A DNA stretch of 64,000 nucleotides from Candidatus Neomarinimicrobiota bacterium (GTDB lineage: Bacteria > Fidelibacterota > Marinisomatia > Marinisomatales > S15-B10). Shown here in pieces: positions 5,930 to 20,296 of the stretch. The stretch lies in NCBI GenBank assembly GCA_012964825.1, contig DTTI01000042.1, forward strand, positions 27,531-91,530, written 5' to 3'. The notes beneath the pieces were generated by a model that was not told the origin of the DNA, did not search any database, and worked only from the letters and a program-made list of their open reading frames with translations. Made by a program: the position numbers and the translations under genes. Position 1 is the stretch's first letter, and every line of letters starts with the position of its first letter.

Positions 5930-6772
5930 ATGGAAGCGGAACAGAAAAATTCAACAGTGCGAGTCATCGTACACTCGTTTTTTGTTGTACCATTTCTAAT
6001 TGCTGCTTTTGGAGTTCTCATATTTTTCATGTGGCGGCTTCTTACATATGAGCCGAAGGGTGCTGAAGAATACCTGGCTGATGTGAAGATCGGCAGTGCT
6101 ACCAAAAGATGGCAATCTGCTTTTGAGTTATCAAGATTGTTGGCTAATCCCGACATGCCGCAAATCTCAGATAGATTTGTATCTGAAATGCACTCAGCTT
6201 ATGAATATGCATTGCGAGATCCGGATACACGTGTCCGGCAGTATCTCATTCGAGCGATGGGTCAGACAGCCAACCCTTCTTTTGTAGTAACAATTCAAAA
6301 TGCATTGAATGAATACAATGAAGATGTTGTGGCTGATGCAATATATTCCCTCAGTTATTACAACGAAATTGAAAATGTCAAACTTATTGTTCAACAAACT
6401 GATCACCCATCCGCCTTGGTGAGGAATCGGGCGGCTATTGCACTTGGTGCGATGAGTGCGGATGATTCCTTCACGGGTCTCCGGTCTCTCCTATCTGATC
6501 CTGAGCCCAACGTACGGTGGAATGCCGCTGTGTCCCTGGCAAAACATGGTGATCCATCTGGCCGCACTGTATTGTTAAACCTTCTTGACAGGTCTTACCT
6601 GGCAAGATTTGAAGGGGTTGATCGATACGAAAGTGAGCAAGCTATGATGGTTGCAATTCAGGCTGCCGCTATGCTGGATGATTCCGAAATTGATGAAGTT
6701 TTGAGAGTTCTCAGCGATACTGATGAAAACTTGAAGCTTCGAGATTTGGCAAAAAAGGCACTGAAATTGTAG
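5930..6772 (+). CDS. membrane-anchored HEAT-repeat protein
   Basis: 280 aa. One N-terminal membrane segment (about residues 16-39, FFVVPFLIAAFGVLIFFMW) is followed by a mostly helical domain with HEAT-like repeats. Repeat cores include DTRVRQYLIRAMGQ, HPSALVRNRAAIALGAMS and DPEPNVRWNAAVSLAKHGD, each an Arg/Ala-rich helix pair of about 31 aa. Such repeats are protein-binding scaffolds. The gene begins the respiratory cluster and sits 9 bp before the Rieske gene, so an assembly or scaffold role for the bc-type complex is inferred. No cofactor motif is visible. The exact partner is unknown. Confidence 0.8.
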   Translation: MEAEQKNSTVRVIVHSFFVVPFLIAAFGVLIFFMWRLLTYEPKGAEEYLADVKIGSATKRWQSAFELSRLLANPDMPQISDRFVSEMHSAYEYALRDPDTRVRQYLIRAMGQTANPSFVVTIQNALNEYNEDVVADAIYSLSYYNEIENVKLIVQQTDHPSALVRNRAAIALGAMSADDSFTGLRSLLSDPEPNVRWNAAVSLAKHGDPSGRTVLLNLLDRSYLARFEGVDRYESEQAMMVAIQAAAMLDDSEIDEVLRVLSDTDENLKLRDLAKKALKL

Positions 6773-6781
6773 GAGAGACTT

Positions 6782-7345
6782 GTGACGGAAGAAGTACTAA
6801 AGGAAAAAATTAAAGAAAAACAACCCGTAGCATCTGTTGGCGAAGGATCTATTAAGGAAAAAGTACAGCGGCGTTCATTTATTTCTTGGCTTGCTATAGC
6901 TTGGGTAGCTTTTGCTGCTGCAACAGGCGGATTCTTTACTATGGTGTTGAGAATTTTCTTTCCCAATGTACTTTTTGAACCTCCACAGACATTCAAAATA
7001 GGCTTTCCTGAGGATTATGAAATTGGCTTAGTAGATATACGATGGCAGGAAAAATTCGCAACATGGATTATTAGGAGTACAGAATATATTTATGCTCTCT
7101 CCACCACCTGCACTCATCTTGGCTGTACACCCAATTGGTTGGAAAATGAAAACAAATTCAAATGCCCATGCCATGGTAGCGGCTTCCGAAAGTCGGGAAT
7201 AAATTTTGAAGGGCCTGCTCCCCGGCCTCTCGAGCGTTATAGGATTGTTCTAGCGGATGATGGACAGATCCTTATTGATAAAAATAGAAAATTTCAGTAT
7301 GAAAAAGGACAATGGTCGGACTCTGAGTCATTCTTGGTTGTATAA
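6782..7345 (+). CDS. Rieske iron-sulfur protein of a bc-type complex
   Basis: 187 aa subunit that takes electrons from quinol via a 2Fe-2S cluster and passes them to cytochrome c. The cluster motifs are CTHLGCTP and CPCHGSGF, the classical Cys-His pairs with both disulfide cysteines. The N-terminus has a twin-arginine-like sequence QRRSFISW directly before a single membrane helix, as in Tat-inserted Rieske proteins. Start is GTG 6782, with AGGAGAG about 6 bases upstream. Immediately followed by the two cytochrome b genes. Confidence 0.95.
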   Translation: MTEEVLKEKIKEKQPVASVGEGSIKEKVQRRSFISWLAIAWVAFAAATGGFFTMVLRIFFPNVLFEPPQTFKIGFPEDYEIGLVDIRWQEKFATWIIRSTEYIYALSTTCTHLGCTPNWLENENKFKCPCHGSGFRKSGINFEGPAPRPLERYRIVLADDGQILIDKNRKFQYEKGQWSDSESFLVV

Positions 7346-7383
7346 AATAGTTAACATGAAAAGGAGTGACTAAAAACTGTCTC

Positions 7384-8169
7384 ATGAGCGATAAAAAGAA
7401 CATATTTGAACGGTTCGGAGATTCCCAGGTATGGAAATCTATTATCCGATCTGGTGTCCCCAGAACTCGCAGGCAAAGGATGATGTCTGTCCTTAATAGT
7501 GTTTTTTTGCATCTTCATCCGGTCAGATTACCCAGACATGCGGTTAAACTGAAATTCACATGGTGCATGGGAGGTCTTACATTTTTCTTGTTTCTGGTTT
7601 TGACCATATCTGGCATACTTCTTATGTTTTATTATCGGCCTACTGTAGAGTATGCATATACGGATATGATCGATCTTGGGGAGCAGGTGCCTCTCGGCAT
7701 CATGCGGGAGATTCACCGTTGGGGGGCTCATGCTATGGTTATTACTGTATGGCTGCACATGTTCCGTGTTTTTATGACGGGATCCTATAAACCTCCCAGA
7801 GAATTCAATTGGTCTATTGGGGTAATTCTTCTTGTTCTTACACTCCTTTTAAGTTTTACTGGTTATCTTTTGCCTTGGGATCAGTTAGCCATGTGGGCAA
7901 TTACTGTTGGTTCCAATATGGCAAGAGCTGCTCCTTTCCTTGGACATGAAGGTCCAGGTGCATCATTATTGTCCATTGGTGACATCAATTTTGTAAACAT
8001 GGGCGCTGATGCAAAGTTTGCTTTGCTCGGCGGACGGTTCGTGGGAGAAGCAGCTTTATTGAGGTTTTATGTTCTGCACTGTATAGGTCTTCCTTTCATA
8101 GTGATGATTCTTATGGCCGTTCACTTCTGGAGAGTTAGAAAGGATGGCGGAATCTCGGGGCCCACTTAG
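7384..8169 (+). CDS. cytochrome b, N-terminal (b6-like) subunit
   Basis: 261 aa, four-helix haem-bearing half of a quinol:cytochrome c reductase. Four haem-ligand histidines can be placed: H111 (MREIHRW) and H125 (VWLHMFRV) in the second helix, H232 (YVLHCIGLP) and H247 ([10 protein letters not shown]) in the fourth. The second pair has 14 intervening residues, the spacing of b6-type proteins rather than the 13 of mitochondrial-type cytochrome b. The Qo region [16 protein letters not shown] is present. Start taken at ATG 7384; an in-frame GTG at 7366 inside the AAGGAG sequence is less likely. The distance from AAGGAG to the ATG is long (17 nt). Confidence 0.93.
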
Positions 8170-8192
8170 TCCCGATAATAAGAGCAACTCAA

Positions 8193-9308
8193 ATGGATAG
8201 TTTTAAGGATTTAATCAATTTTATTACTCGACCTACGCTGATGCTCACATTTGCTATGTTCAGCTTTCCATTCTTCTTTCCTGTAAATGATTGGTTTGAC
8301 AAATGGAACAAGCGGTTGAAATTTAATTTGCTCTGGTCAAATGGGGGGCTGGTCGTAGTAATGACGGGCCTGGTTTTGTTTTTCTTGGTGGGCCTGGAAG
8401 ACAGTGATTTTCGTCTTATTGTTTTCAAACCAGACAATGTTCCCATTGTAGGCCTTATTTTTCTGGTTTATTTCTTTCTTTGGGTGAGTATGAAACAGGC
8501 TGTGGATAATGATGCTCAACTTCAGTCTGGAAATAAACCAAATGAATACAATGATCCTGAAGACAAAGTTTTGGTTTGGCCTGACCTTGTCTATGTTGAA
8601 TTCATTTGCCTCATCTTATGTACCTGTCTATTGCTGGTTTGGTCCATTGGATTAGATGCTCCCCTTGAAGAACCGGCCAATCCGGCTTCTACACCGAATC
8701 CTTCCAAAGCACCTTGGTACTTCCTTGGGCTTCAGGAGATGTTAGTCTATTTTGATCCCTGGCTTGCTGGTGTTGTTTACCCAACCATAATTGTTGTTGG
8801 CTTAATGGCAATTCCTTATCTGGATAGGAATCCGGAAGGTTCTGGTTTTTTCCAGTTCAAGAATAGAAGATTCGCCATTTCGATATATATATTTGGCTGG
8901 ATCATTCTCTGGGTAATGTTGATTGTTATCGGAACTTTCTTAAGAGGCCCAAATTGGAATTTCTTCGGGCCATTTGAATATTGGGATTTGCATAAACTTG
9001 AGCCTTTGACTAATATCAATCTTTCAGAGATCATTTATATCAAATACCTTAATACTGGATTACCTCAAAATATTCTACTTAGAGAAATTTTTGGTATTCT
9101 ACTGGTTGTTGGATATTTACTGATTCTCCCTCCTTTATTTGCAAAAACTATCTTCAAGCGAATCTATGAGAAACTGGGAAGTTTTAGCTTTGGTGTATTT
9201 GTTTTTCTTGTTTTGAGCATGTTGTCTCTACCTATAAAAATGTACTTGCGATGGATTTTTAATCTTAAGTACATAATAGCTATTCCTGAGTTTTTCTTCA
9301 ATATCTGA
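8193..9308 (+). CDS. cytochrome b, C-terminal (subunit IV-like) protein
   Basis: 371 aa polytopic membrane protein that completes the split cytochrome b. The quinol-site region is recognisable as NPSKAPWYFLGLQEML, the counterpart of the PEWY segment in this split family. It is much longer than chloroplast subunit IV (about 160 aa) and has roughly seven to eight hydrophobic segments, with extra helices at both ends. It lies 23 bp after the N-terminal half and 9 bp before the multihaem cytochrome. Sequence is notably AT-rich. Confidence 0.88.
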   Translation: MDSFKDLINFITRPTLMLTFAMFSFPFFFPVNDWFDKWNKRLKFNLLWSNGGLVVVMTGLVLFFLVGLEDSDFRLIVFKPDNVPIVGLIFLVYFFLWVSMKQAVDNDAQLQSGNKPNEYNDPEDKVLVWPDLVYVEFICLILCTCLLLVWSIGLDAPLEEPANPASTPNPSKAPWYFLGLQEMLVYFDPWLAGVVYPTIIVVGLMAIPYLDRNPEGSGFFQFKNRRFAISIYIFGWIILWVMLIVIGTFLRGPNWNFFGPFEYWDLHKLEPLTNINLSEIIYIKYLNTGLPQNILLREIFGILLVVGYLLILPPLFAKTIFKRIYEKLGSFSFGVFVFLVLSMLSLPIKMYLRWIFNLKYIIAIPEFFFNI

Positions 9309-9317
9309 TATACCGGA

Positions 9318-12302
9318 ATGGATAAGCAAGAGAGACATTATAACATTTTCAGTCTGAACCGGCTTTTTGCCATTTCCAGTATATTTTTCTTTGTCCTCAT
9401 TGTTTGGACCTTTATAGATGATTATGATAGAAACTGGAAATATTATCAGCGTGAATTCAGAAAACTGGAATCTGATCAAACACAAAACTTACTTTCAGCG
9501 GAAAGAGAGCGAATTCAAGAGTTAGAAGAATATCAAAATGCGGAAGCCGAATTGGAGCTTGCTAAGAGTAGCCTTGATTCAAGGAAAGAAGACTTGTCTG
9601 TATTGGGGAAACAAGAAAGAAAATTGCAGGCGGTCAATTATAAAGCAGAGCAAGAATTATCGTTTATAAAGTCAGACTATGATGCCACACGTTACCGTTA
9701 TGAAGATGCTGTAACCAGAGGCAATGGAAAAGTAGACAATTTGAAACGCCAGCTAGATGAACTTGAGGCTGATGTTTCCCAAAAGAATTTGATAGTTCAA
9801 GAGGCTTCAGCATCCCTTTCTTCTAAGTCTGCTGAGATTGATGAATTGAGGAAACAGGCTGATGATGCCATGGATGAGATCGGGAAGTTCTCACGGCAGG
9901 CCGATCTTTTTGAAAGAAAGCTGCGAAATATTGATCCGAGTGCCATGACGATTTCAAATCGTGTTGCCGCAGCTGTGCGCGACCTGCCCGTAATCGATTT
10001 TTTAAATCCGTACATAAAGATAAAACAGATAATTCTTCCTGAGCTCAGGGATGAATTGAATTTTATGAGAATGCCAAAAGTTGACAGATGTACCACATGT
10101 CACTTGGGCATTGACCAAGCAGGTTTTGAAGATGTACCTCAGCCATACACAACTCATCCCAATCTGGACCTATTCCTAACAAGTTCTTCTCCGCATCCTA
10201 TTGAAGAATACGGGTGTACCAGTTGCCATGCAGGACGGGGAAGAGGAACTGATTTTACCACAGCATCTCATTCTCCCAGCTCTCACGAGCAAGAAGAAGA
10301 ATGGGTTGAAAAATATGACTGGCATGAAATGCATCACTGGGACACTCCAATGTATCCGGCCCAATACACTGAAGCAGGATGCTTAAAGTGCCATGTAGAC
10401 CAACCTTTCATTCGTGGAGCTGATGATTTGAATATGGGCTTAGCACTGTTTGAAAAGACGTCTTGCAACAGCTGTCATTATATTGAAAGGTACGATGAGA
10501 CCTATGCACAAAGAGTGGGTCCCAATCTGACTTATATTTCTTCCAAAACAACAAAAGATTGGACTTACCGCTGGGTCCAAAATCCGCGTAGTTTCAGGCA
10601 CAATACCTGGATGCCACACTTTTTTGACATAAAAGATGAAAACGATGATGAGGAAAAATTAAGATCAAGCCAGGAAGTACATGCTATAGTAAGCTATTTA
10701 TTTAGTCGCAGTGAAAATTTCTCGCTTACATCTTTGCCAAGAATGGGTAATACGGACCGTGGTGAATACTTATTTAATAATCTCGGATGTGAAGGTTGTC
10801 ATAAAATTCAGGATGAACCTGATAATAATCCTTATACCCTGGCTTCACTTCGGCAGGAACATGGGCCGAATCTTATTGGCCTTGGTTCAAAGACCACACA
10901 AAAATGGCTATATAGTTGGTTAAAAAATCCTAAAGACTATCATCCTGAGAGCCGGATGCCAAACCTTAGACTTTCGGATGTTGAAGCAACAGATTTGGCA
11001 AGTTATTTATTTAGTCTTTCGGAAGATGAGTTTATGTCTTCATCAATCCCTTCTTTTGATGAGAAGATGCAATCAGATATAGCTTTCCAGTTTTTGTCTA
11101 AAATGAATTCTGACAAAGTTGCTCGGTCTGAATTGGCTTCCATGGACATGGTTGAAAAGCTTGAATACAATGGTTCGAAGCTTATTCAGCACTATGGATG
11201 TACTGGATGTCATCTTATTCCTGGTTTTGAAGATGCTAAACGTATTGGGGTAGCTCTTGATGGCGAAGGTAGCAAACCGTTAAATAAGCTGGATTTTGGT
11301 TATTTGGACATTCCGCATTCTAAGATCAACTGGTTTACTCAAAAAGTAAAGGATCCCAAAAGCTTCGATAAAAATAAGGTGGTAGGACCTTATAACGGAT
11401 TAAGGATGCCAGACTATGGATTAAGTGATGAAGAAATCGAAAGAATCGTAACTGTTATTTTGGCATTGAATAAAGATGATACCAAGAAAAAACCTAATTC
11501 AGCCCACAAAACATTTGTTGAAGCTGGGCAGTGGGTGGTTAGGAACAACAATTGTCAAGGATGTCATATCATTGAAGAACGGGGTGGAGATATTCTATCC
11601 AATTTTGTTGCCATGGAATACGGACCGCCGAACTTAAATACGGAAGGCGAAAAAGTTCAGCCTGGTTGGCTTCTTTCCTTTTTTGATAACCCTACAACAA
11701 TAAGGCCGAATCTTCTGGTTCGCATGCCTTCATTCGAGCTTGGGGATGAAAAATGGAACAACCTAATCAAGTATTTTCAATATTGGGATGGGCAGACCAC
11801 ACCATATGAAGGTGATTATACACCTCAAAAAAACAATGTTGGCTACCGCGCTGGTATAAAGCTCCACGAAATGGGTGCTTGTAACAATTGCCATTATTAT
11901 GGCACTACCCAACCTCTTCAGACTCCTCAAACATGGGCTCCAAATATGGCGCTAACCAAAGAACGTTTAAGACCTGACTGGGTTATGGAATGGTTACGTG
12001 ATCCTCAAAAAATTATGCCAGGCACAAAAATGCCGAAGCCATATATCCCGGCGCCTGAGGAATTAACTTCATCCGATGCTTCAGAAATATTTGGGACAGA
12101 GATAATGAAACTTTCTGGCGATGATGAGGCCATGCTTAGAGGACTTACAGATTATGTTTATGCTATTCCTGGAAAGGTTGATATTTCGTCTGAAATAGCA
12201 ACTTTCTTCAGCAAAAATGGTTACGATTTCCTTGAGGACTTAGAGGAAATTGATGATTGGGATGATGAGGAGTGGGAAGACGAAGAAGAGTGGCAAAATT
12301 AA
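9318..12302 (+). CDS. membrane-anchored octahaem cytochrome c
   Basis: 994 aa electron-transfer protein, probably replacing cytochrome c1 in the bc-type complex. A single N-terminal membrane helix (about residues 14-32) is followed by a long charged coiled coil (about 40-205). Eight CxxCH haem-attachment motifs have their first Cys at residues 258, 300, 355, 383, 491, 628, 746 and 855. From the fourth on, each is followed by a Met-ligand-like RMP/KMP motif (for example SRMPNLRLSD, LRMPDYGLSD, VRMPSFELGD), so these look like five class-I cytochrome c domains in a row. The first three are more closely spaced and lack it. The C-terminus is an acidic tail ending DDEEWEDEEEWQN. Located between cytochrome b and a cupredoxin gene. 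Confidence 0.92.
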   Translation: MDKQERHYNIFSLNRLFAISSIFFFVLIVWTFIDDYDRNWKYYQREFRKLESDQTQNLLSAERERIQELEEYQNAEAELELAKSSLDSRKEDLSVLGKQERKLQAVNYKAEQELSFIKSDYDATRYRYEDAVTRGNGKVDNLKRQLDELEADVSQKNLIVQEASASLSSKSAEIDELRKQADDAMDEIGKFSRQADLFERKLRNIDPSAMTISNRVAAAVRDLPVIDFLNPYIKIKQIILPELRDELNFMRMPKVDRCTTCHLGIDQAGFEDVPQPYTTHPNLDLFLTSSSPHPIEEYGCTSCHAGRGRGTDFTTASHSPSSHEQEEEWVEKYDWHEMHHWDTPMYPAQYTEAGCLKCHVDQPFIRGADDLNMGLALFEKTSCNSCHYIERYDETYAQRVGPNLTYISSKTTKDWTYRWVQNPRSFRHNTWMPHFFDIKDENDDEEKLRSSQEVHAIVSYLFSRSENFSLTSLPRMGNTDRGEYLFNNLGCEGCHKIQDEPDNNPYTLASLRQEHGPNLIGLGSKTTQKWLYSWLKNPKDYHPESRMPNLRLSDVEATDLASYLFSLSEDEFMSSSIPSFDEKMQSDIAFQFLSKMNSDKVARSELASMDMVEKLEYNGSKLIQHYGCTGCHLIPGFEDAKRIGVALDGEGSKPLNKLDFGYLDIPHSKINWFTQKVKDPKSFDKNKVVGPYNGLRMPDYGLSDEEIERIVTVILALNKDDTKKKPNSAHKTFVEAGQWVVRNNNCQGCHIIEERGGDILSNFVAMEYGPPNLNTEGEKVQPGWLLSFFDNPTTIRPNLLVRMPSFELGDEKWNNLIKYFQYWDGQTTPYEGDYTPQKNNVGYRAGIKLHEMGACNNCHYYGTTQPLQTPQTWAPNMALTKERLRPDWVMEWLRDPQKIMPGTKMPKPYIPAPEELTSSDASEIFGTEIMKLSGDDEAMLRGLTDYVYAIPGKVDISSEIATFFSKNGYDFLEDLEEIDDWDDEEWEDEEEWQN

Positions 12303-12341
12303 AGCCACTTAATTGTTCTAATTAAGAAGGAGGATACTCTC

Positions 12342-13067
12342 ATGAGTTATCGGTCAAGAGCAACATTTATTTTGACAACAGGGCTTATATTTTCCAGCAT
12401 TCTCACTGCTGGTGGCATAAAGGGTACAGTAAAGTATGAAGGTAAAGTACCAAGGATGAAGCCAATCAAGATGGCCGCTGATCCAATTTGTGACGGTAAA
12501 CACGCTGAAGGCCCAGCTCGTTTAGAATGGCTTCTGGCTGGCAGTGAAGGAGAGTTAAAGAACGTTTTTGTCTACGTGAAAGAAGGGCTTGGCGACAAAA
12601 AATTCGCCGCTCCTGAAAAGGTAGCAACCATCGATCAGAACGGTTGTGTTTACAAACCACACATTCTCGGTGTTCAAGTTGGACAGAAAATAGAGATATT
12701 GAATAGTGACGGTACCCTCCACAATGTTCATGCGATGCCCAAGAAAAAAAATAATGTTGCTTTTAATGAGGCTATGCCAGGCGCTCGTAAGAAAGTCACG
12801 AAGAAATTTGATGAAGCCGAAATCATGGTAAGAGTGAAGTGTGATGTTCATCCATGGATGGGAGCCTTTATTGGTGTCCTCGATCATCCTTTCTTTTCAG
12901 TAACTGATGAAAATGGCAATTTTGAAATAGAAAATTTGCCTCCCGGCACGTATACTGTCGAAGCTTGGCATGAGCGATTACCAGCGAAGACCGTTACGGT
13001 TACAGTTCAGGCTGATGGAGATGCTACAGCTGACTTTGTTCTTAAGCGTCCACCAAAAAAAGAATAA
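12342..13067 (+). CDS. secreted cupredoxin with carboxypeptidase-regulatory-like domain
   Basis: 241 aa exported protein with an N-terminal signal sequence (about residues 1-24). The middle part looks like a blue-copper (plastocyanin-like) fold: SDGTLHNVHA supplies a His, and KCDVHPWMGAFIGV supplies the Cys-His-Met set expected of a type 1 copper site. The C-terminal part (FSVTDENGNFEIENLPPGTY) is a carboxypeptidase-regulatory-like beta-sandwich. A strong AAGGAGG lies just before ATG 12342. Its place between the multihaem cytochrome and CoxA suggests a soluble or periplasmic carrier, or a copper donor to the oxidase. Which of the two it is cannot be decided from the sequence. Confidence 0.85.
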   Translation: MSYRSRATFILTTGLIFSSILTAGGIKGTVKYEGKVPRMKPIKMAADPICDGKHAEGPARLEWLLAGSEGELKNVFVYVKEGLGDKKFAAPEKVATIDQNGCVYKPHILGVQVGQKIEILNSDGTLHNVHAMPKKKNNVAFNEAMPGARKKVTKKFDEAEIMVRVKCDVHPWMGAFIGVLDHPFFSVTDENGNFEIENLPPGTYTVEAWHERLPAKTVTVTVQADGDATADFVLKRPPKKE

Positions 13068-13120
13068 TCTGAAATAATTTGTGTTTAAAATATATTTGAT
13101 CTAATGATTAGGAGAGTGTA

Positions 13121-14851
13121 GTGGCAGAGCATCATCACCACGAGCCTTTCTGGCGGAAATATATATTTTCTGTTGATCATAAAGTAATCGGTCTACAGTA
13201 CGCTATCACGGCTATGTTTTTCCTTTTGTTTGGATTCTGCTTGATGTTGATAATGAGATGGAATCTGGCTTACCCCAGCGAAGTTGTTCCTATTGTTGGC
13301 AAACTTCTTTCTGAAGAGGGAATGCTGACCCCCGATGGGTATAACTCATTTGGTGCTATGCACGGAACGATCATGGTGTTTCTTGGTGTGGTGCCTTTGG
13401 CTGTGGGTGGATTCGGTAACTATGTTCTACCTCTTCAGATTGGTGCTCCTGACATGGCTTTTCCGAAAATTAATATGGCCAGCTATTGGTCATTTTTTGT
13501 GGGTGGTGTACTCATGCTGGCCAGTTTTTTCATGCCTCAGGGCACTGCGAGCTCCGGCTGGACTATGTATGCACCCCTTTCGATCATTGCTGAAACTGGA
13601 GAAACCATCTGGCTCTTTGGCATGATATTTCTGATCACATCATCCCTTTTAGGTTCGGTTAATTTTATTGCAACTGTCATCCAGTTGCGTACAAAAGGTC
13701 TTACTTGGATGAGACTGCCCTTTTTTGTCTGGACTCAGTTTGTTACAGCATTTTTACTCCTGCTTGCATTCCCTCCTTTGGAGGTAGCGGCAGTTTTTCA
13801 ATTGATGGATAGATTGGCTGGTACAAGTTTTTTCCTTCCATCGGGGCTCTACGTGGGGACTGAAGTGCTGAATGTAGCAGGAGGTGGAAGCCCTCTTTTA
13901 TGGCAACATCTTTTCTGGTTTCTTGCTCATCCCGAGGTTTATGTTCTGGTTCTCCCAGCCATGGGGATAGTGGCAGAGGTGCTCGCAAATAACACCAGGA
14001 AGCCTCTTTGGGGTTATCGTTCCATGGTCTATTCGTTGATTTTCCTCGGCTTTATGTCATTTGTTGTCTGGGCCCATCACATGTTTCTCACAGGAATGGG
14101 AACTACCATGGCTGCATTCTTTCAGACGACTACCATGATTATCTCCATCCCCTCTATCATTATTCTGTCGGCATTTTTCATTTCACTCTGGGGCGGTTCC
14201 ATCAGGTTTAACACACCCATGTTGTTTGCCCTGGGGTTTCTGCCCATGTTTGGGATAGGCGGACTGACGGGTCTCCCTTTGGGATTAGCTTCAGCCGATA
14301 TTCATCTTCATGATACATATTATGTTATTGGCCATTTCCATTATGTTGTAGCACCGGGAACCATCTTTGCTCTCTTTGCCGGAATTTATTACTGGTTCCC
14401 AAAGGTAACTGGAAAACGGATGAACGAAGGACTCGGCAAGATCCACTTCTATGGTTCTTTCATCTGTATGAATGGAGTTTTCAGTCCCATGTTCATCCAA
14501 GGTCTGGCTGGTGTCTCAAGACGATTGTATGATGGTGGAACCACTTATCTACATGCTCAACCTGTTCTCCAATGGAATGAATTCATGACCATGGCAGCAT
14601 TGGGGCTAGGGTTATTCCAGTTTTTCTTTATTGCGAATCTGTTTATCAGTCTTGCTAAGGGTGAGAAAGTCTCCAGCAATGCATGGGACGCTACCACATT
14701 GGAATGGGCTGCTGCGCCATCTCCACCGCTGCCTCATGTCAACTTTGAGAAAGTACCGGATGTCTACCGTGGACCTTATGAGTACAACACGGATGGAGCT
14801 AACGGTCAAAATCGTGACTTTACTCCACAACATGAAGCTGTAAAGGGTTAG
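13121..14851 (+). CDS. coxA: cytochrome c oxidase subunit I
   Basis: 576 aa, twelve-helix catalytic subunit of an A-type haem-copper oxidase that reduces O2 and pumps protons. The haem a ligand region is [12 protein letters not shown]. The CuB/cross-linked tyrosine motif is [11 protein letters not shown], with the D-channel Glu. CuB histidines are in [12 protein letters not shown], and the high- and low-spin haem ligands in [19 protein letters not shown] makes it A-type rather than cbb3. Start is GTG 13121, with AGGAGAG upstream. Followed 4 bp later by subunit III. Confidence 0.97.
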
Positions 14852-14855
14852 ACTG

Positions 14856-15449
14856 ATGCAGATTCCGTACACTGTCAAGGCTCGACCAGATACAGGACTT
14901 TACAACGCCAAGATCGGTATATGGCTTTTCCTGGCATCAGAAGTGATGCTATTTGGTGCATTGTTCTCATCATACATTCTTTTGCGGACTGGAGCCACTA
15001 CTTGGTTTGTGGGATCGGAGGAACTCAGTGTTCCTATAGGTACTTTCAATACAATGGTACTTATTGTTTCAAGTGTAACTGTGGTGATGGCGTGGGCTTC
15101 CCTTAGAATGGACGACTTCAAGAAATATAGACTTTACATGGGTCTCACCATACTTCTTGGACTGACTTTTCTGGTTGTAAAGATTATGTTTGAGTATATG
15201 CCAAAAATTGAACATCATCATATACCAAGTACCCATAATTTTTATGCTACCTACTTTGTGTTGACGGGTCTTCATGCTCTCCACGTGGTTGGAGGCCTCA
15301 TTGTTAACGCTTATTTCTGGGGCCCAGGTGCCAAAATGTGGGAGACAGCCCCGGAGCAGTTTACTAACCGCATTGAGATTGCTGGTCTTTACTGGCATTT
15401 TGTTGACATTGTATGGATTTTTCTTTTTCCTACAATCTATCTCTTATAA
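14856..15449 (+). CDS. coxC: cytochrome c oxidase subunit III
   Basis: 197 aa membrane protein with five helices, the short bacterial form. Family sequence is seen in [21 protein letters not shown] near the start (quoted in part: [15 protein letters not shown]) and in [12 protein letters not shown] and [13 protein letters not shown] at the end. It stabilises subunit I during turnover. It lies between coxA and the subunit IV gene in the same operon. Confidence 0.95.
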
Positions 15450-15457
15450 GGTGAGGT

Positions 15458-15790
15458 ATGAACGCGACACAAGATATCAAGAACGAGATTAATAGTTACA
15501 TAAAAGTGTTCGGTGCCTTGGCCGTTTTGACGGTAGTAACTGTAGCTGTGGCTTCGCTTAAGTTCAGTATTGGTTTGGCTGTACTTGTTGCCATGGTGAT
15601 CGCCACGGTAAAAGGCTCGCTTGTAGCAAGTTTTTTTATGCATTTGGCTCACGAAAAAAAATTGATTTATCTATTGCTCTTTATCACGCTTGTTTTTTTG
15701 ATGTCGCTATTGTTCATAACATTTGGAACAATAGGCGATCAAGTTGGAGTGAAAATTGTCCCTGAAAGCATTTCATCTGGCGTTCATTAG
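15458..15790 (+). CDS. coxD: cytochrome c oxidase subunit IV-like protein
   Basis: 110 aa with three hydrophobic helices. The middle helix KGSLVASFFMHLAHEKKL is the recognisable prokaryotic subunit IV (CyoD/COX4_pro type) motif. Small accessory subunit of the oxidase. Its 3' end overlaps the next small gene by 35 bp in another frame. Confidence 0.88.
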   Translation: MNATQDIKNEINSYIKVFGALAVLTVVTVAVASLKFSIGLAVLVAMVIATVKGSLVASFFMHLAHEKKLIYLLLFITLVFLMSLLFITFGTIGDQVGVKIVPESISSGVH

Positions 15791-15950
15791 TCTTTCCACA
15801 GCACTGACTTTTGGGTTTGGAGTTTGGACCTTCATTGAAGGTAGTGGAAACTTTACTGTGTACGGGTTGCTCTCTTTCCTTTTCGGAGTGGCTTTAATAG
15901 TTTATGGAGTCAAATTTCTGAAAAAGTTTCGTGACGTAAGTTATTTATGA
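15756..15950 (+). CDS. small two-helix membrane protein in oxidase operon
   Basis: 64 aa with two hydrophobic helices (about 6-26 and 32-52) and a basic C-terminal end. TTG start at 15756 with GGAG (15746-15749) six bases upstream, inside the end of coxD. The stop overlaps the next ATG by 4 bp. The overlaps at both ends and the good ribosome-binding site argue for a real gene. Not recognised as a named family; probably an accessory subunit or assembly factor of the oxidase. Confidence 0.65.
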   Translation: MSLKAFHLAFISLSTALTFGFGVWTFIEGSGNFTVYGLLSFLFGVALIVYGVKFLKKFRDVSYL

Positions 15951-16219
15951 AAAAAATCTCTAGACTTGCATTTGTCTTTGCTTCAATTTTTTGTCTGATT
16001 CCTGGAATTGCATCAGCATGTTCGGTCTGTTTTGGTGCACCTGCAGACCACCCCATGACTGAAAGTCTTAATTTGGCAATCATTGCTCTCATAGGTGTTA
16101 CGGGAACCGTTCTCGGTGGAATTTCCACCTTTTTTATCTTCTTGGCACGTCGTGGGAAAAAGTTTAGCGAGATCATGGAAATATATGATTCACATAATGG
16201 AAATGGGAGAGCACATTAA
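15947..16219 (+). CDS. small exported membrane protein with CxxC motif
   Basis: 90 aa. Signal-like N-terminus ending IASA, then ACSVCFG just after the predicted cleavage point, and one further membrane helix (about 47-70). A CxxC pair placed at the outer membrane face could bind a metal or be redox active. ATG overlaps the previous stop (ATGA), and its own stop shares one base with the coxB start. No named family was recognised; the context implies an oxidase accessory protein. Confidence 0.72.
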   Translation: MKKISRLAFVFASIFCLIPGIASACSVCFGAPADHPMTESLNLAIIALIGVTGTVLGGISTFFIFLARRGKKFSEIMEIYDSHNGNGRAH

Positions 16220-17163
16220 TGCTTGATTTGCTCCGCAATCTTGGGTTGGCTGAAGGTTATTCAGCGCAGTCGCCAGCCGTGGATAGTGTCATTTCATGGA
16301 GTCACATTCTGATGTTAATTTTATTTGTCGGATGGGGATCTTTTTTCATCTATACATTAATCCGATTTCGACAGAAAAAGAATCCTGAAGCTGATCCAGT
16401 AGGTGTTACAAATCATTATTCCACGTATGCAGAAGTCGGTGTAGCAGTGTTTGAAATTGTCCTTCTCATTATTTTTTCTTTTCCGGTTTGGGCAAGCCGT
16501 GTAGAGGAAGTGCCTGACAGAGCTGAGGCAGAAGTCATTAGGGTTGTGGGACAGCAGTTCAAATGGAATATTCACTACCCAGGTGATGATGGTGTTTTTG
16601 GCCGAACGTCGGCTCATCTTATTGATGATCAGGCACTGAACTTTATCGGTTTTGATAAAAAAGATGAGGCAGGTCAGGATGACATTATCCCAACGCAGGG
16701 GCATCTTCACTTGCCTGTGAATAAAGATATCCTGATAGAGATTTCTACAAGAGATGTTATCCACAGCTTTTCTATCCCTGTCATGCGTGTGAAGCAGGAT
16801 GCCATTCCAGGGATTCGAATCCCAACATGGTTTACCCCTATAAGAACAGGTTCATGGGAGATTGCCTGTGCCCAACTTTGCGGAAACAGCCATTATGAAA
16901 TGAAAGGGTATGTTCACGTCCACACCCAGCAGGGATATGATGCATATATGAAAACATTGGCCGTCGTAAGGGATGTGGATGACTACGACTATACTTTTGA
17001 AGCGGAAAGCACACTAAGTAAAGCCATCAATGCTCTAAAGGAAGGTAACGCAGGGCAGGCTGAAGATCTGGCATTACAAGCATTGTCGCAGGCTGAAGAA
17101 GCCAAAGTAGAGAAGGAGGCAGCTGGGGACGACGAAGATGATGATTGGGGAGAAGAGTGGTAA
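16219..17163 (+). CDS. coxB: cytochrome c oxidase subunit II
   Basis: 314 aa subunit that accepts electrons from cytochrome c through the binuclear CuA centre. Two N-terminal helices, then the cupredoxin domain with DVIHSFSIPVM and the CuA loop CAQLCGNSHYEMKG, which contains the two Cys, His, Glu and Met ligands. There is no fused cytochrome c domain. It has an additional C-terminal stretch of about 60 aa, helical and Ala/Glu-rich, ending in the acidic tail DDEDDDWGEEW, which resembles the end of the octahaem cytochrome. In this operon coxB comes after, not before, coxA. Confidence 0.95.
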   Translation: MLDLLRNLGLAEGYSAQSPAVDSVISWSHILMLILFVGWGSFFIYTLIRFRQKKNPEADPVGVTNHYSTYAEVGVAVFEIVLLIIFSFPVWASRVEEVPDRAEAEVIRVVGQQFKWNIHYPGDDGVFGRTSAHLIDDQALNFIGFDKKDEAGQDDIIPTQGHLHLPVNKDILIEISTRDVIHSFSIPVMRVKQDAIPGIRIPTWFTPIRTGSWEIACAQLCGNSHYEMKGYVHVHTQQGYDAYMKTLAVVRDVDDYDYTFEAESTLSKAINALKEGNAGQAEDLALQALSQAEEAKVEKEAAGDDEDDDWGEEW

Positions 17164-17195
17164 CTTTTACCTGACACACCCACCTCAATTTCAAG

Positions 17196-19133
17196 GTGGC
17201 TTCTACTTTTTCTTACATTAAAAACTCACAGACTTGGTTAAGGCGGTACTCTAAGTTCACCGCCTTTTCCACTTTAGGGCTCATCTTTGCAGGTGGTTTG
17301 GTTACAAGTACAGGTTCGGGACTCGCCGTACCAGATTGGCCCAATACTTATGGTGAATTCATTTTCACCTTTCCTTATTCAAAATGGGTGGGTGGAATAT
17401 TCTACGAACACCTCCATAGACTACTCGCGTCTTTTGTCGGTTTTTTAACGCTTGTTCTTTCAATTTGGCTTTGGAGAACTGAGCCGCGGCCGTGGATGAA
17501 AAAGCTCGGTTTGTTTGCTCTTGGGGCGGTCATTGCACAGGGAATTCTGGGTGGACTTACAGTGTTATTTCTACTCCCCACGGCCATATCCATGACACAC
17601 GGTATCCTAGCACAGACATTTTTCTGTATCACCATCTTTATCGCCTATTCTCTTTCAAAAGAGTGGAACTCCTCTCGTTCATCCTTGGCCAGAGTTGAAA
17701 ATGAATCGTTTGTTTGGTGGAGCATAACTCTGACAGGGTTGATTTATGCTCAGCTGATTTTAGGTGCTCTCATGCGCCATACAGGTTCGGGGCTGGCAGT
17801 GCTTGATTTTCCTTTTGCAAACGGGAAAGTAATCCCAATACTTAGCGACCTACTGCTCTTAAACATAAACTATGCTCGTTTTGATCTGGGGCTGGAGCCC
17901 GTCACAATGGGTCAAATTATAGTTCATATGCTTCATCGGTTAGGGGCGGTTTTGGTATTGGTTACAGCTGCGGGACTGACAGTTCAGACAATAAGACATC
18001 AGCGCGGGGAAGATAAAATCTTTTTGCCTGTACTGTTCTTCGATCTTCTACTGCTGACTCAAATAGCGCTGGCTGCTTTTGTTATTTGGAGCATCAAGGC
18101 GCCCATCATTACCACCTTCCACGTCTGGACAGGTGCTCTGCTTCTTGGAACATCATTTTTCCTTACCCTCCGTTCTTTGCGGGTACTCATCCCCGAAGGA
18201 AGATTGCAATTGATTTTTCAACGTCAACCTTTAACAGTAGAAAAATCCAACGGGTTAAAGGGTTATCTCTTAAGTCTTTGGGAAATGATGAAACCGAGAA
18301 TTGTTTCATTGGTTTTGGTGTCAACTGTAATTGGGTATTACCTCGGTGCCGTGGAATCGGGAAAGTCGATCTTGACTGAGCCGTGGATGTTAATTCATAC
18401 TCTAATAGGGACAGCTTTTGTGGCGGGAGGCGCTGGTGTTCTCAATCATTATCTTGAGCGAGACCTGGACAGGCAGATGAAAAGGACAATGAAACGGCCC
18501 ATACCTTCCGGCAGAGTTAAGCCCAATGCAGCAAGGAGGTTCGGGATTTACATATCTGTTATGGGAATTATCTATCTGTTTTCAGTCGTCAATATCCCTA
18601 CGGCAGCTGTGGCCTTTCTCACACTTTTTCTCTATTTAATCATTTATACGCCACTGAAAATGAAGACCACTTGGAACACGTTAATAGGTGCCATTCCCGG
18701 CGCATTGCCAACTCTGGGTGGTTGGCTTGCTGCCAGTGGGAGTCTTGAAACTGGCGGATGGATTCTTTTCGGGATTCTTTTCCTTTGGCAGATACCCCAT
18801 TTTTTTGCCATTGCCTGGTTATACAGACATGACTACGGGCGGGTCGGTTTTAAAATGCTTCCTTCGGTAGATCCTTCAATGAGAAAAACGTCCGCTTTTT
18901 CTGTTTTATTCTGCGTACTATTGATTCTTTGTACAACATTATTGCATTTGAATGGTAGTGCCGGCAAGGTTTTTATGTGGGGATCGCTATTGCTTGGCTT
19001 CACCTTTCTTGCGCTAGCCATAGATGCTTCCAGAGGGTGGACAGAGGTGAGAGCACGCCGCCTTCTGGCGGGATCCATCATCTATCTCCCGCTTTTACTC
19101 GTAATCATGGTAATTGACCAAAGTTTATTGTAA
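17196..19133 (+). CDS. haem A synthase / haem O synthase fusion (CtaA-CtaB)
   Basis: 645 aa polytopic membrane protein with two enzymes in one chain. Residues about 1-330 are CtaA (haem O to haem A), with conserved histidines in EHLHRLLA, SMTHGILAQ, HMLHRLGAV and TTFHVWTGA. Residues about 350-645 are the UbiA-type CtaB (protohaem farnesyltransferase), with NHYLERDLDRQMKRT holding the Asp-rich metal site and the second region WQIPHFFAIAWLYRHDY. Fusion puts the two consecutive steps of haem A synthesis together. GTG start at 17196, since the next ATG lies well inside CtaA. Directly downstream of the oxidase that needs haem A. Confidence 0.93.
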   Translation: MASTFSYIKNSQTWLRRYSKFTAFSTLGLIFAGGLVTSTGSGLAVPDWPNTYGEFIFTFPYSKWVGGIFYEHLHRLLASFVGFLTLVLSIWLWRTEPRPWMKKLGLFALGAVIAQGILGGLTVLFLLPTAISMTHGILAQTFFCITIFIAYSLSKEWNSSRSSLARVENESFVWWSITLTGLIYAQLILGALMRHTGSGLAVLDFPFANGKVIPILSDLLLLNINYARFDLGLEPVTMGQIIVHMLHRLGAVLVLVTAAGLTVQTIRHQRGEDKIFLPVLFFDLLLLTQIALAAFVIWSIKAPIITTFHVWTGALLLGTSFFLTLRSLRVLIPEGRLQLIFQRQPLTVEKSNGLKGYLLSLWEMMKPRIVSLVLVSTVIGYYLGAVESGKSILTEPWMLIHTLIGTAFVAGGAGVLNHYLERDLDRQMKRTMKRPIPSGRVKPNAARRFGIYISVMGIIYLFSVVNIPTAAVAFLTLFLYLIIYTPLKMKTTWNTLIGAIPGALPTLGGWLAASGSLETGGWILFGILFLWQIPHFFAIAWLYRHDYGRVGFKMLPSVDPSMRKTSAFSVLFCVLLILCTTLLHLNGSAGKVFMWGSLLLGFTFLALAIDASRGWTEVRARRLLAGSIIYLPLLLVIMVIDQSLL

Positions 19134-19175
19134 TGGAAGATCCAATGTGCTTCTTTGGAGTTTAGGAGGAATGAC

Positions 19176-19766
19176 ATGTCTTTATTGAAAGATAAACGTT
19201 TCTGGCTTTTCGTCACTTTTGGTGTCATTATCCTTGTGGTGAGTCTGAGACGCCAAGACAGCAAAAAGAGTGAGTTGCCCATTCTTGGAAAGCTCATTGA
19301 TTTCCAATTGACGGATCAAAATGGAGAGATTTTCAGTAAGGAAGATTTATTAGGGAAAGTTTGGGTGGCTGACTTCATCTTCACCACCTGTGCTGGGCCG
19401 TGCCCCGTTATGTCAGGCCAGTTCGCCGAGCTTCAGTCACGGTTTTCAAATGCACCAGATTTAAATCTTCTATCGATTTCTGTGAATCCAGATTATGATT
19501 CACCGGAGATCCTCCGTGAATACGGCGGCCGGTACGGAGCAAACTACAACAAGTGGCGTTTCCTCACAGGGGACAGAGAAGCAATACACGAACTTGCTGT
19601 TGACGGATTCAAAGTTGGTTCGGTTGAGGATCCCATCTTTCACAGCACCCGATTCATCCTTCTCGATGACAAAGCGAGGATCAGAGGTTATTACATCAGT
19701 TCAGAGCTTGAGGAGATGCAACAGTTATGGCGCGATGTTGAACTTCTGGCGGTAGTAACACCTTGA
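19176..19766 (+). CDS. Sco1/SenC-type copper chaperone
   Basis: 196 aa membrane-anchored thioredoxin-fold protein that loads copper into the CuA site. The metal motif is TTCAGPCPVM (CxxxC), with the distal His in FHSTRFILL. A single N-terminal helix is present. ATG 19176 is chosen because AGGAGG (19164-19169) sits six bases upstream; the frame is open to 19155. Overlaps the following TTG start. Confidence 0.93.
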   Translation: MSLLKDKRFWLFVTFGVIILVVSLRRQDSKKSELPILGKLIDFQLTDQNGEIFSKEDLLGKVWVADFIFTTCAGPCPVMSGQFAELQSRFSNAPDLNLLSISVNPDYDSPEILREYGGRYGANYNKWRFLTGDREAIHELAVDGFKVGSVEDPIFHSTRFILLDDKARIRGYYISSELEEMQQLWRDVELLAVVTP

Positions 19767-20296
19767 CAACACTTCCCGTTCTCGGCGAGAAGTTTTGGCT
19801 CAGGATTATCTACATCTTTTCAGCCGTTCTCGCTTTTGCAGTCGCTTTCCTCATTCTCGGGCCGCGGCCGGATGGTATGGAAGCGGCCGTTGATGTTTCC
19901 GGGCTTCCTACAATCAATGCTATTTTGAATCTGACAACGACAGTTCTCCTGGTGGTAGCCTACGTTTTTATCCGGCAGAAAAAGATTTCTCTTCACAAAA
20001 ATACGATGTTGACCGCTTTTGGCACTTCAGCTCTTTTCCTAGTGACTTATGTGATCTACCACTGGTTCAAGAGTGGCCCAGCCCATTATGCCGGAGAGTG
20101 GCATACGGTATATTTCTTTATCCTTTTTACGCACATCATTCTTGCGGCGGTTATCTTGCCTCTGGCCATGGTTACTCTGTATCGCGGCTGGACAATGAAT
20201 GTCCGGAAGCACCGTAAGATTGCCAAAATAACCCTACCGATCTGGCTCTACGTTAGTGTTACAGGCGTTATAATCTATTCGATGCTCTACCTTTAG
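19763..20296 (+). CDS. DUF420 membrane protein
   Basis: 177 aa with five hydrophobic helices, resembling the DUF420 (YozB-like) family often found beside ctaA/ctaB/sco genes. Histidines lie near helix ends (SLHKNTML, IYHWFKSG, FTHIILAA, KHRKIAK), as in that family. TTG start at 19763 overlaps the sco stop (TTGA). Probably last gene of the respiratory operon and linked to oxidase assembly; its exact role is not known. Confidence 0.8.
   Translation: MTTLPVLGEKFWLRIIYIFSAVLAFAVAFLILGPRPDGMEAAVDVSGLPTINAILNLTTTVLLVVAYVFIRQKKISLHKNTMLTAFGTSALFLVTYVIYHWFKSGPAHYAGEWHTVYFFILFTHIILAAVILPLAMVTLYRGWTMNVRKHRKIAKITLPIWLYVSVTGVIIYSMLYL

What the first reader, a model, noticed from the sequence alone, without database searches (positions are those of the whole stretch)
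5930..20296. A complete quinol-to-oxygen module with an octahaem replacement for cytochrome c1
HEAT protein, Rieske, split b6-like cytochrome b, a 994-aa membrane-anchored cytochrome with eight CxxCH motifs, a cupredoxin and a full aa3 oxidase lie in one plus-strand run with mostly short gaps or overlaps. No mono-haem c1 or cytochrome f gene is present, so electrons would go from Rieske through eight haems (and perhaps the cupredoxin) to CuA. A one-piece haem wire between complex III and IV suggests an obligate supercomplex. Basis: motifs are seen; the supercomplex is inference.
Basis: partly seen in the sequence, partly recalled or inferred. Interest (0 to 1): 0.72.

Follow-up and report, generated by a model that had tools for sequence, protein, structure and literature searches.

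The report
Widespread eight-haem stand-in for complex III
Bacteria from several little-studied phyla share a respiratory gene set in which a membrane-anchored protein with eight haem-binding motifs sits where cytochrome c1 or f is usually found, with a HEAT-repeat protein nearly always encoded beside it, and together they likely carry electrons from quinol towards an oxygen-reducing enzyme.

Summary
In what is, by its relatives, a Marinimicrobia (Fidelibacterota) genome, one plus-strand run encodes a HEAT protein, Rieske, split b6-type cytochrome b, a 994-aa eight-CxxCH cytochrome, a type-1 copper protein and a CuA haem-copper oxidase with assembly genes. Searches of the held genome (97.6% complete) found one cytochrome b, one COX1, no c1, no cytochrome bd. 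The five-gene core is not local: of 80 loci fetched by the octahaem protein, 57 have enough upstream sequence, and Rieske, b6 and subunit IV are there in 57, HEAT in 56, over eight named groups. All eight CxxCH, three histidines and five methionines are invariant in 81 of 81 cytochromes: one candidate distal ligand per haem (3 bis-His, 5 His/Met, inferred). Eight other Rieske/b loci lack HEAT, and the seven cytochromes readable there lack the helical stalk. Octahaem beside a split b6 is in print (Nitrospina, Kuenenia, Methylomirabilis); a HEAT + stalk version was not seen in the papers searched. 'Obligate supercomplex' is not supported: COX1 is near in 37 of 62 Marinimicrobia genomes and 21 of 42 loci (Acidobacteriota 1 of 12); a cupredoxin is near in 30 of the 42.

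The parts
5930..6772 (+). HEAT-repeat protein (280 aa), one N-terminal TM, HEAT domain likely periplasmic; near-constant first gene of the unit
   Evidence: Pfam HEAT_2 5e-21; TM 8-42; present in 56 of 57 loci with enough upstream sequence; flank charges summed over the 63 of 65 sequences with a TM: N side KR 132/DE 119, C side KR 90/DE 167
6782..7345 (+). Rieske [2Fe-2S] subunit, CTHLGC and CPCHGS motifs, TM 33-61
   Evidence: best NCBIfam match b6f Rieske 3.7e-20, 72 bits, below its cut-off 250
7366..8169 (+). cytochrome b6-like subunit; haem b ligands H117/H131 and H238/H253 (spacing 14 and 15), Cys67 aligned with Cys35 of solved b6
   Evidence: PDB best hit cytochrome b6 7e-41 with alignment; conservation in 71 sequences; only PF00033 protein found in the genome
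8193..9308 (+). long subunit IV-like protein (371 aa against about 160 in b6f), extra TM segments outside the matched core, Qo motif APWY
   Evidence: Pfam 1.1e-7, PDB b6f subunit IV 6.5e-7; hydropathy scan; APWY 77 of 77
9318..12302 (+). octahaem cytochrome c, 994 aa, membrane anchored; takes the place of c1/f
9435..9932 (+). helical stalk, residues 40-205 of the octahaem protein
   Evidence: AlphaFold helices 40-68, 70-88, 90-134, 139-191, 193-205, pLDDT mostly 80-92; 133-179 aa long in 79 of 81 sequences, the other two (L113, L119) shorter or cut off
10089..10394 (+). haems 1-3 (CxxCH at 258, 300, 355) with invariant H280, H293, H318 as candidate distal ligands
   Evidence: 81 of 81; ligation inferred
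10464..12032 (+). haems 4-8 in class-I-like domains, CxxCH at 383, 491, 628, 746, 855 with candidate distal Met 432, 547, 697, 803, 905
   Evidence: 81 of 81; Pfam Cytochrom_C 2.3e-29
12342..13067 (+). likely periplasmic type-1 copper protein (cupredoxin domain plus CarboxypepD_reg-like domain), candidate electron shuttle
   Evidence: H127, C167, H170, M173 invariant in 32 of 32; AlphaFold pLDDT 90.9 with amicyanin, pseudoazurin and plastocyanin among the best PDB matches; Pfam Copper-bind only 19.7 bits, below cut-off 21.2; N-terminal hydrophobic segment 8-28
13121..14851 (+). haem-copper oxidase subunit I, aa3-like
   Evidence: Pfam COX1 6e-134; TIGR02891 CtaD 573 bits, below its cut-off 671; only PF00115 protein found in the genome
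14856..15449 (+). oxidase subunit III
   Evidence: Pfam COX3 6e-18
15458..15790 (+). oxidase subunit IV
   Evidence: Pfam COX4_pro 8e-13
16219..17163 (+). oxidase subunit II with CuA-type motif (CAQLCGNSHYEM), no CxxCH
17196..19133 (+). haem O synthase with an N-terminal half that is likely haem A synthase-like
   Evidence: TIGR01473 263 bits, above cut-off 210, residues 361-641; N-terminal half named from recall
19155..19766 (+). Sco-like assembly protein (name from recall; no NCBIfam match, Pfam not run)
   Evidence: found with many of the clusters
19763..20296 (+). DUF420-like membrane protein (name from recall; no library run)
   Evidence: four TM segments; found with some of the clusters

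Best explanation
Five adjacent genes encode a HEAT-repeat protein, a Rieske protein, a split b6-type cytochrome b and a membrane-anchored cytochrome with eight CxxCH motifs, which likely form one quinol-oxidising complex that would pass electrons along the haem chain and, probably through the neighbouring cupredoxin, to the CuA site of the adjacent aa3-like oxidase. Shown: gene order, motifs, their conservation, and that searches of the held genome found no c1 and no second cytochrome b. Inferred: quinol is oxidised at the cytochrome b/subunit IV Qo site; one electron recycles over the b haems and a b6f-like haem cN at Cys67; the other goes from Rieske to the three bis-His haems next to the stalk, then over five His/Met haems. 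The order of haems, the quinol type and the cupredoxin step are untested. The HEAT protein likely sits on the periplasmic side and holds the helical stalk, because HEAT and stalk occur together and are absent together.
For: Core unit: 20 of 20 Marinimicrobia stretches keep HEAT-Rieske-b6-SUIV-octahaem in order, all with 8 CxxCH; of the 80 loci (which include some of the same Marinimicrobia contigs), the 57 with 4.8 kb or more upstream have Rieske, b6 and SUIV in 57 and HEAT in 56, with the five genes seen together in eight named groups, two of them by one genome each; the miss, L106, has a HEAT ORF about 3.4 kb before its Rieske. Loci were found by octahaem patterns alone, so the neighbours are not built in. 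Co-occurrence: 65 of 150 genomes have the octahaem protein and the same 65 the close b6 (b6 only partial in G084, G086, G093; octahaem only in pieces in a few, e.g. G098). Haem ligands 81 of 81. HEAT/stalk: no HEAT-profile hit at E<=10 in 8 other Rieske/b loci, and no stalk in the 7 cytochromes readable there. Oxidase link: COX1 in 62 of 65 octahaem genomes against 42 of 85 others (genomes are not independent); COX1 downstream on the same strand in 24 of 80 loci, in 6 named groups and one unnamed bacterium. Cupredoxin: near in 20 of 21 loci with COX1 and 10 of 21 without; type-1 Cu ligands 32 of 32, cupredoxin fold. No cyd gene found.
Against: In 11 of 42 loci neither cupredoxin nor COX1 lies near; COX1 is near in only 1 of 12 Acidobacteriota loci with enough sequence; in 22 of 62 Marinimicrobia genomes COX1 is on another contig and in 3 of 65 none was found (drafts). 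A small mono-haem cytochrome c exists in the genome and could be the carrier. The octahaem model is of moderate confidence (pLDDT 71, pTM 0.61) and poor at haems 1-3. No redox potential, complex or activity is known. Nothing shows that HEAT touches the stalk; the charge bias for its topology is modest.
Confidence: 0.5

Rival explanations
1. One reading: the octahaem protein hands electrons directly to CuA in a fixed complex III-IV supercomplex, with no mobile carrier.
For: COX1 lies within 13 kb on the same strand in 37 of 62 Marinimicrobia genomes, 36 of them downstream, and downstream in 24 of 80 loci over several groups; cox2 has no fused haem c; octahaem distances track cox2 given cox1 and b6 (partial r 0.56, permutation p 0.001, 18 loci plus window).
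Against: No COX1 near in 21 of 42 loci, in Acidobacteriota 11 of 12; the partial correlation falls to 0.26 when SUIV and HEAT are added; a type-1 copper gene sits between octahaem and cox1 here, and a mono-haem c exists.
Confidence: 0.25
2. The octahaem complex is a general quinol-to-periplasm hub that feeds several acceptors (other reductases, outer-membrane routes), oxygen being only one.
For: 11 of 42 loci have neither COX1 nor cupredoxin near; 3 of 65 octahaem genomes show no COX1; further multihaem cytochromes in the genome.
Against: COX1 in 62 of 65 octahaem genomes; in this genome no cyd and one COX1 found. Other reductases were not surveyed.
Confidence: 0.17
3. It is a Kuenenia-type bifurcating Rieske/b complex that makes NAD(P)H.
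For: Published Kuenenia complexes share split b6, lengthened SUIV and a multihaem cytochrome, one with long helices (PMC12954380, passages).
Against: No NAD(P) oxidoreductase gene in the run; oxidase genes instead.
Confidence: 0.03

Closest known systems
Octahaem cytochrome next to split cytochrome b: Nitrospina gracilis, Kuenenia, Methylomirabilis (PMC3578206, passages seen)
   Same: Rieske, b6, subunit IV and an octahaem cytochrome in one operon, no c1/f
   Different: The passages seen mention no HEAT subunit, stalk, cupredoxin or oxidase in the operon; those sequences were not in hand, so homology of the octahaem parts is untested
Kuenenia Kustd1480-1485 and Kuste4569-4574 (PMC12954380, passages seen)
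   Same: b6-like cytochrome b, lengthened subunit IV (five TM), hexa- or octahaem cytochrome instead of f, long helices that wrap the complex (Kustd1485), haem cN
   Different: Kuenenia operons carry a putative NAD(P) oxidoreductase; here none, but HEAT and an oxidase
Cytochrome b6f complex
   Same: Split b6/SUIV, haem-ligand spacing 14 and 15, cN cysteine, Rieske
   Different: No cytochrome f beside it; eight-haem cytochrome, 371-aa SUIV, HEAT protein, Qo motif APWY
Actinobacterial bcc-aa3 supercomplex (e.g. PMC4505504, PMC5040959; starts of abstracts in the listings)
   Same: More than one haem in the c1-type subunit, aa3 oxidase, no or little need of soluble cytochrome c
   Different: The diheme QcrC model gives only a 22-bit local match against a cut-off of 200; a supercomplex is unproven here
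Type-2 octahaem Rieske/b6 operons found here (L078-L080)
   Same: Rieske, b6 (about 50% identical), SUIV, eight CxxCH
   Different: No stalk, no HEAT hit, short SUIV (242-251 aa)
Alternative complex III
   Same: Quinol:electron acceptor reductase with multihaem subunits (recalled)
   Different: The one PF03916 (NrfD) hit of the genome is an Fe-S/NrfD fusion elsewhere

Membership tests
Rieske/cytochrome b (bc/b6f) superfamily | Rieske cluster motifs | tested here: met
   CTHLGC at 110, CPCHGS at 128
Rieske/cytochrome b (bc/b6f) superfamily | four haem b histidines in cytochrome b | tested here: met
   H117, H131, H238, H253 in 71 of 71
Cytochrome b6f | split b6 and subunit IV | tested here: met
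Cytochrome b6f | cysteine for haem cN | tested here: met
   Cys67 aligns with Cys35 of 1vf5_A; 70 of 71, one gap; the haem itself is untested
Cytochrome b6f | cytochrome f | tested here: inconclusive
   none next to the only b6 found; no PF01333/PF16639 search was run
Canonical bc1 | cytochrome c1 (PF02167) | tested here: not met
   0 hits in own genome, 0 of 150 in phylum
Octahaem-bearing Rieske/b6 complexes (Nitrospina, Kuenenia, Methylomirabilis) | octahaem cytochrome beside split b | tested here: met
Octahaem-bearing Rieske/b6 complexes (Nitrospina, Kuenenia, Methylomirabilis) | homology of the octahaem protein to the published ones | not tested
   no sequence so named among the rows listed (capped lists, most rows of 8, 39 and 65 unnamed)
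Kuenenia R/b complexes | NAD(P) oxidoreductase in the operon | tested here: not met
Complex III-IV supercomplex | co-purification with the oxidase | not testable with these tools
   only gene linkage is available
Ext (selenite/tellurite) operon proteins ExtP/ExtQ/ExtS | NCBIfam equivalog cut-offs | tested here: not met
   267 of 290, 64 of 150, 51 of 100 bits
Alternative complex III | NrfD-type membrane subunits | tested here: inconclusive
   PF03916 only: one hit, an Fe-S/NrfD fusion at C44; other ACIII subunits not searched

The most novel reading that the evidence does not exclude
A distinct, old class of complex III, with HEAT-repeat protein, helical stalk and eight ligand-fixed haems as obligate parts, serves respiration across six to eight bacterial phyla: the HEAT solenoid clamps the stalk so that the 3+5 haem chain is held out over the membrane as a fixed wire to a cupredoxin or straight to CuA, making a freely diffusing small cytochrome c needless.
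Probability: 0.35. Interest if true: 0.72.

Novelty: new variant of a known kind. Interest (0 to 1): 0.52.

Why it matters
It gives a sharply defined, multi-phylum class of putative quinol-oxidising complex (Acidobacteriota, Gemmatimonadota, Latescibacterota, Omnitrophota, Planctomycetota, Marinimicrobia and others) in which the most variable part of complex III, the cytochrome c, is fixed at eight haems and one extra subunit is nearly always there. It makes testable how electrons leave complex III in uncultured ocean, soil and groundwater bacteria, and gives annotators a marker (HEAT + stalked octahaem) for a protein that sources now name 'c-type cytochrome' or 'cbb3-type cytochrome oxidase cytochrome c subunit'.

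Tried and rejected
Marinimicrobia-only family: rejected, the same protein is found in other phyla. Haem loss in one relative (L087 counted 2 CxxCH): an artefact of ambiguous bases (X) in that draft. Alternative complex III: one NrfD hit, a ferredoxin-NrfD fusion; the wider stretch around it (L178) was fetched but not analysed. Fold search of the octahaem model against PDB: 0 matches at E<=0.001, the top rows are mostly long-helix and coiled-coil proteins; a profile search of PDB gave short matches only (single-haem domains and two coiled-coil stretches), so no solved structure of the whole was found. Co-evolution of octahaem with the oxidase: r 0.599 with cox1 (21 rows) rose to 0.855 (19 rows) after L128 was dropped and score thresholds raised; the partial correlation with cox2 (0.56) shrank to 0.26 with more controls, so I give it little weight. 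Search for Kuenenia/Nitrospina octahaem sequences through the short paralog: 120 of 1359 hits are listed, most unnamed; the named ones are Marinimicrobia, Calditrichaeota, Zixibacteria, Glassbacteria, Bacteroidota or plain 'bacterium'. Papers: in the Marinimicrobia papers looked at, PMC5688066 has one passage, a legend entry 'cytochrome bc1 complex', and PMC5596340 discusses the oxidases (passages); neither passage set describes this complex. HEAT with Rieske complexes: no paper listed (8 of 8; 12 of 64) holds 'HEAT repeat'; only open-licence PMC text is held. Rows dropped before counts: G054 and G055 (weak hits, E about 1e-4) from the octahaem count; L113 and L119 from the stalk lengths; loci with too little flank.
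Full report
What is there. The window is G000:C42:27531-91530 of a 2.21-Mb, 84-contig genome, 97.6% complete. SecA ends 277 bp before HEAT; after that, gaps are 4-53 bp or a 4-bp overlap, save 428 bp before cox2, which holds two small ORFs.

The octahaem protein. It has one TM segment (about residues 9-37), a helical stalk of about 165 residues (AlphaFold helices at 40-134 with two short breaks and 139-205; pLDDT mostly 80-92) and eight CxxCH. Over the 80 loci plus the window, every cysteine and histidine of the eight CxxCH, H280, H293 and H318, and M432, M547, M697, M803 and M905 are invariant, 81 of 81. That is eight candidate distal ligands for eight haems: three bis-His and five His/Met (ligation inferred). 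The loci were found by two patterns that fix parts of haem 1 or of the last Met region, so those two spots are partly selected for; the other positions are not. The model is poor at haems 1-3 (stretches of pLDDT below 50), and no haem distances were measured.

The core unit. In 20 of 20 Marinimicrobia stretches the order HEAT-Rieske-b6-SUIV-octahaem is kept with eight CxxCH. In the 11 stalked-octahaem stretches it is kept too; one (L087) counted only two CxxCH because of ambiguous bases. One search scanned GTDB genomes: 338 of 375 pattern matches encode a relative and the best 80 were kept: Acidobacteriota 23, Marinimicrobia 21, Omnitrophota 16, Gemmatimonadota 5, Latescibacterota 4, Planctomycetota 3, one each of PVC group, Lindowbacteria, Spirochaetia and Poribacteria, and 4 unnamed (groups from record titles of metagenome-assembled genomes, single ones may be misbinned; some Marinimicrobia loci are the same contigs as). 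Of the 57 with 4.8 kb or more upstream, Rieske, b6 and SUIV are present in 57 and HEAT in 56: all five genes in Marinimicrobia 18 of 18, Acidobacteriota 13 of 14, Omnitrophota 10 of 10, Gemmatimonadota 5 of 5, Latescibacterota 3 of 3, Planctomycetota 2 of 2, Lindowbacteria 1 of 1, Spirochaetia 1 of 1, unnamed 3 of 3. The miss, L106, has a HEAT ORF about 3.4 kb before its Rieske. All 80 have eight CxxCH.

Co-occurrence. In 150 genomes of the phylum (200 asked, completeness 85% or more), 65 have the octahaem protein (two weak hits left out) and the same 65 have the close b6; in 62 they lie within 6 kb on one strand, in 3 on split contigs. No genome of the 150 has a c1 hit. COX1 is found in 62 of the 65 against 42 of the 85 others (Fisher p 2e-10, but the genomes are related, so this overstates it). 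COX1 lies within 13 kb on the same strand in 37 of 62 (36 downstream, 1 upstream), further off on the same contig in 3, on other contigs in 22. Among the 42 loci with 9 kb or more downstream, COX1 is within 10 kb in 21; cupredoxin and COX1 both near 20, cupredoxin alone 10, COX1 alone 1, neither 11. By group COX1 is near in Gemmatimonadota 4 of 4 and Omnitrophota 6 of 7 but Acidobacteriota 1 of 12, where the cupredoxin is still near in 8 of 12. So the five-gene core is the fixed unit, the oxidase a frequent neighbour, the cupredoxin a more frequent one.

HEAT and stalk. HEAT has one TM; the flank charges over 63 of 65 sequences suggest N-in, HEAT outside (modest). In the same phylum other Rieske/b operons with multihaem cytochromes exist: type 2 (L078-L081; three with a readable octahaem of 658-707 aa frame, without stalk) and type 3 (L082, L083, L084, L092; a cytochrome b of 350-361 aa frame and a 514-546 aa cytochrome with 8, 7, 8 and 8 CxxCH, first haem motif within about 100 residues of the frame start). 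None of these eight loci gives a HEAT-profile hit even at E 10. HEAT and stalk thus come as a package, from which I infer that they touch.

Cytochrome b part. The b6 protein is nearest to solved b6 (7e-41), and its Cys67 aligns with Cys35 of 1vf5_A, the haem cN cysteine (the role of that cysteine is established b6f knowledge, recalled). His spacing 14 and 15 is b6-like (recalled rule). SUIV is 371 aa with extra TM segments and an APWY Qo motif in 77 of 77.

Electron exit. In the own genome no cyd, one COX1 and one cytochrome b were found. The copper protein has type-1 ligands in 32 of 32, a confident model and amicyanin, pseudoazurin and plastocyanin among the best structural matches. A small mono-haem cytochrome c sits beside a gene that reads by eye like a PQQ dehydrogenase; it could also serve. 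I therefore commit to Rieske, octahaem, cupredoxin, CuA, with direct transfer as the main rival. Mirror-tree figures show the whole block inherited together and do not decide.

What is known. The Nitrospina genome paper (PMC3578206, passages) reports an 'atypical octaheme cytochrome c' beside a split b6-type complex, the same in Kuenenia and Methylomirabilis. The 2025 Kuenenia paper (PMC12954380, passages) describes hexa- or octahaem cytochromes in place of f, five-TM SUIV and a Kustd1485 whose long helices wrap the complex, which resembles the stalk here. The NAD(P) oxidoreductase of those operons is missing here. I could not test sequence homology with them. No paper in the listings, nor the passages looked at, was seen to describe a HEAT subunit; most of these papers were seen only as listings.

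Verdict. Observation confirmed; interpretation partly supported; new variant of a known kind, of good but not extreme interest, its most novel part being the near-constant HEAT subunit and stalk across phyla.

Noticed in passing
window 15756-15950 and 15947-16219 (+): Two small ORFs (64 aa membrane-like; 90 aa with a signal-like start and a CSVCFG motif) fill the 428-bp gap before cox2; similar readings in L031 and L034.
   Followed up: partly
b6 residues H49, H51 and R258 (window 7366-8169): Invariant in 71 of 71 sequences, H49/H51 upstream of the cN cysteine; may match the His/Arg site for an extra dimer-interface haem b that AlphaFold3 predicted in Kuenenia (PMC12954380, passages). Not aligned to Kuenenia.
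   Followed up: partly
L078-L081 and L082, L083, L084, L092: Second and third kinds of multihaem Rieske/b operons in the same phylum: Rieske-b6-short SUIV-octahaem, and Rieske-longer cytochrome b-octahaem; type 3 also lies on one contig with the main type in L169.
   Followed up: partly
G000:C84:166473-170422 (L070:6474-10423): A 557-aa five-CxxCH cytochrome next to a 783-aa eight-CxxCH cytochrome with TPR-like repeats, by eye.
   Followed up: no
G000:C32 (L071:5101-6225) and G000:C35 (L175:2474-3685): Proteins that join a single CxxCH domain to what reads by eye like an outer-membrane beta-barrel (375 and 404 aa frames).
   Followed up: no
window 17196-19133: Likely haem A synthase-like and haem O synthase parts in one 645-aa protein; matched by two ORFs in some relatives (L045, L049).
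   Followed up: no
L035 (G006): The octahaem operon is followed by a less similar oxidase set (cox1 44%, cox2 34% identical).
   Followed up: no
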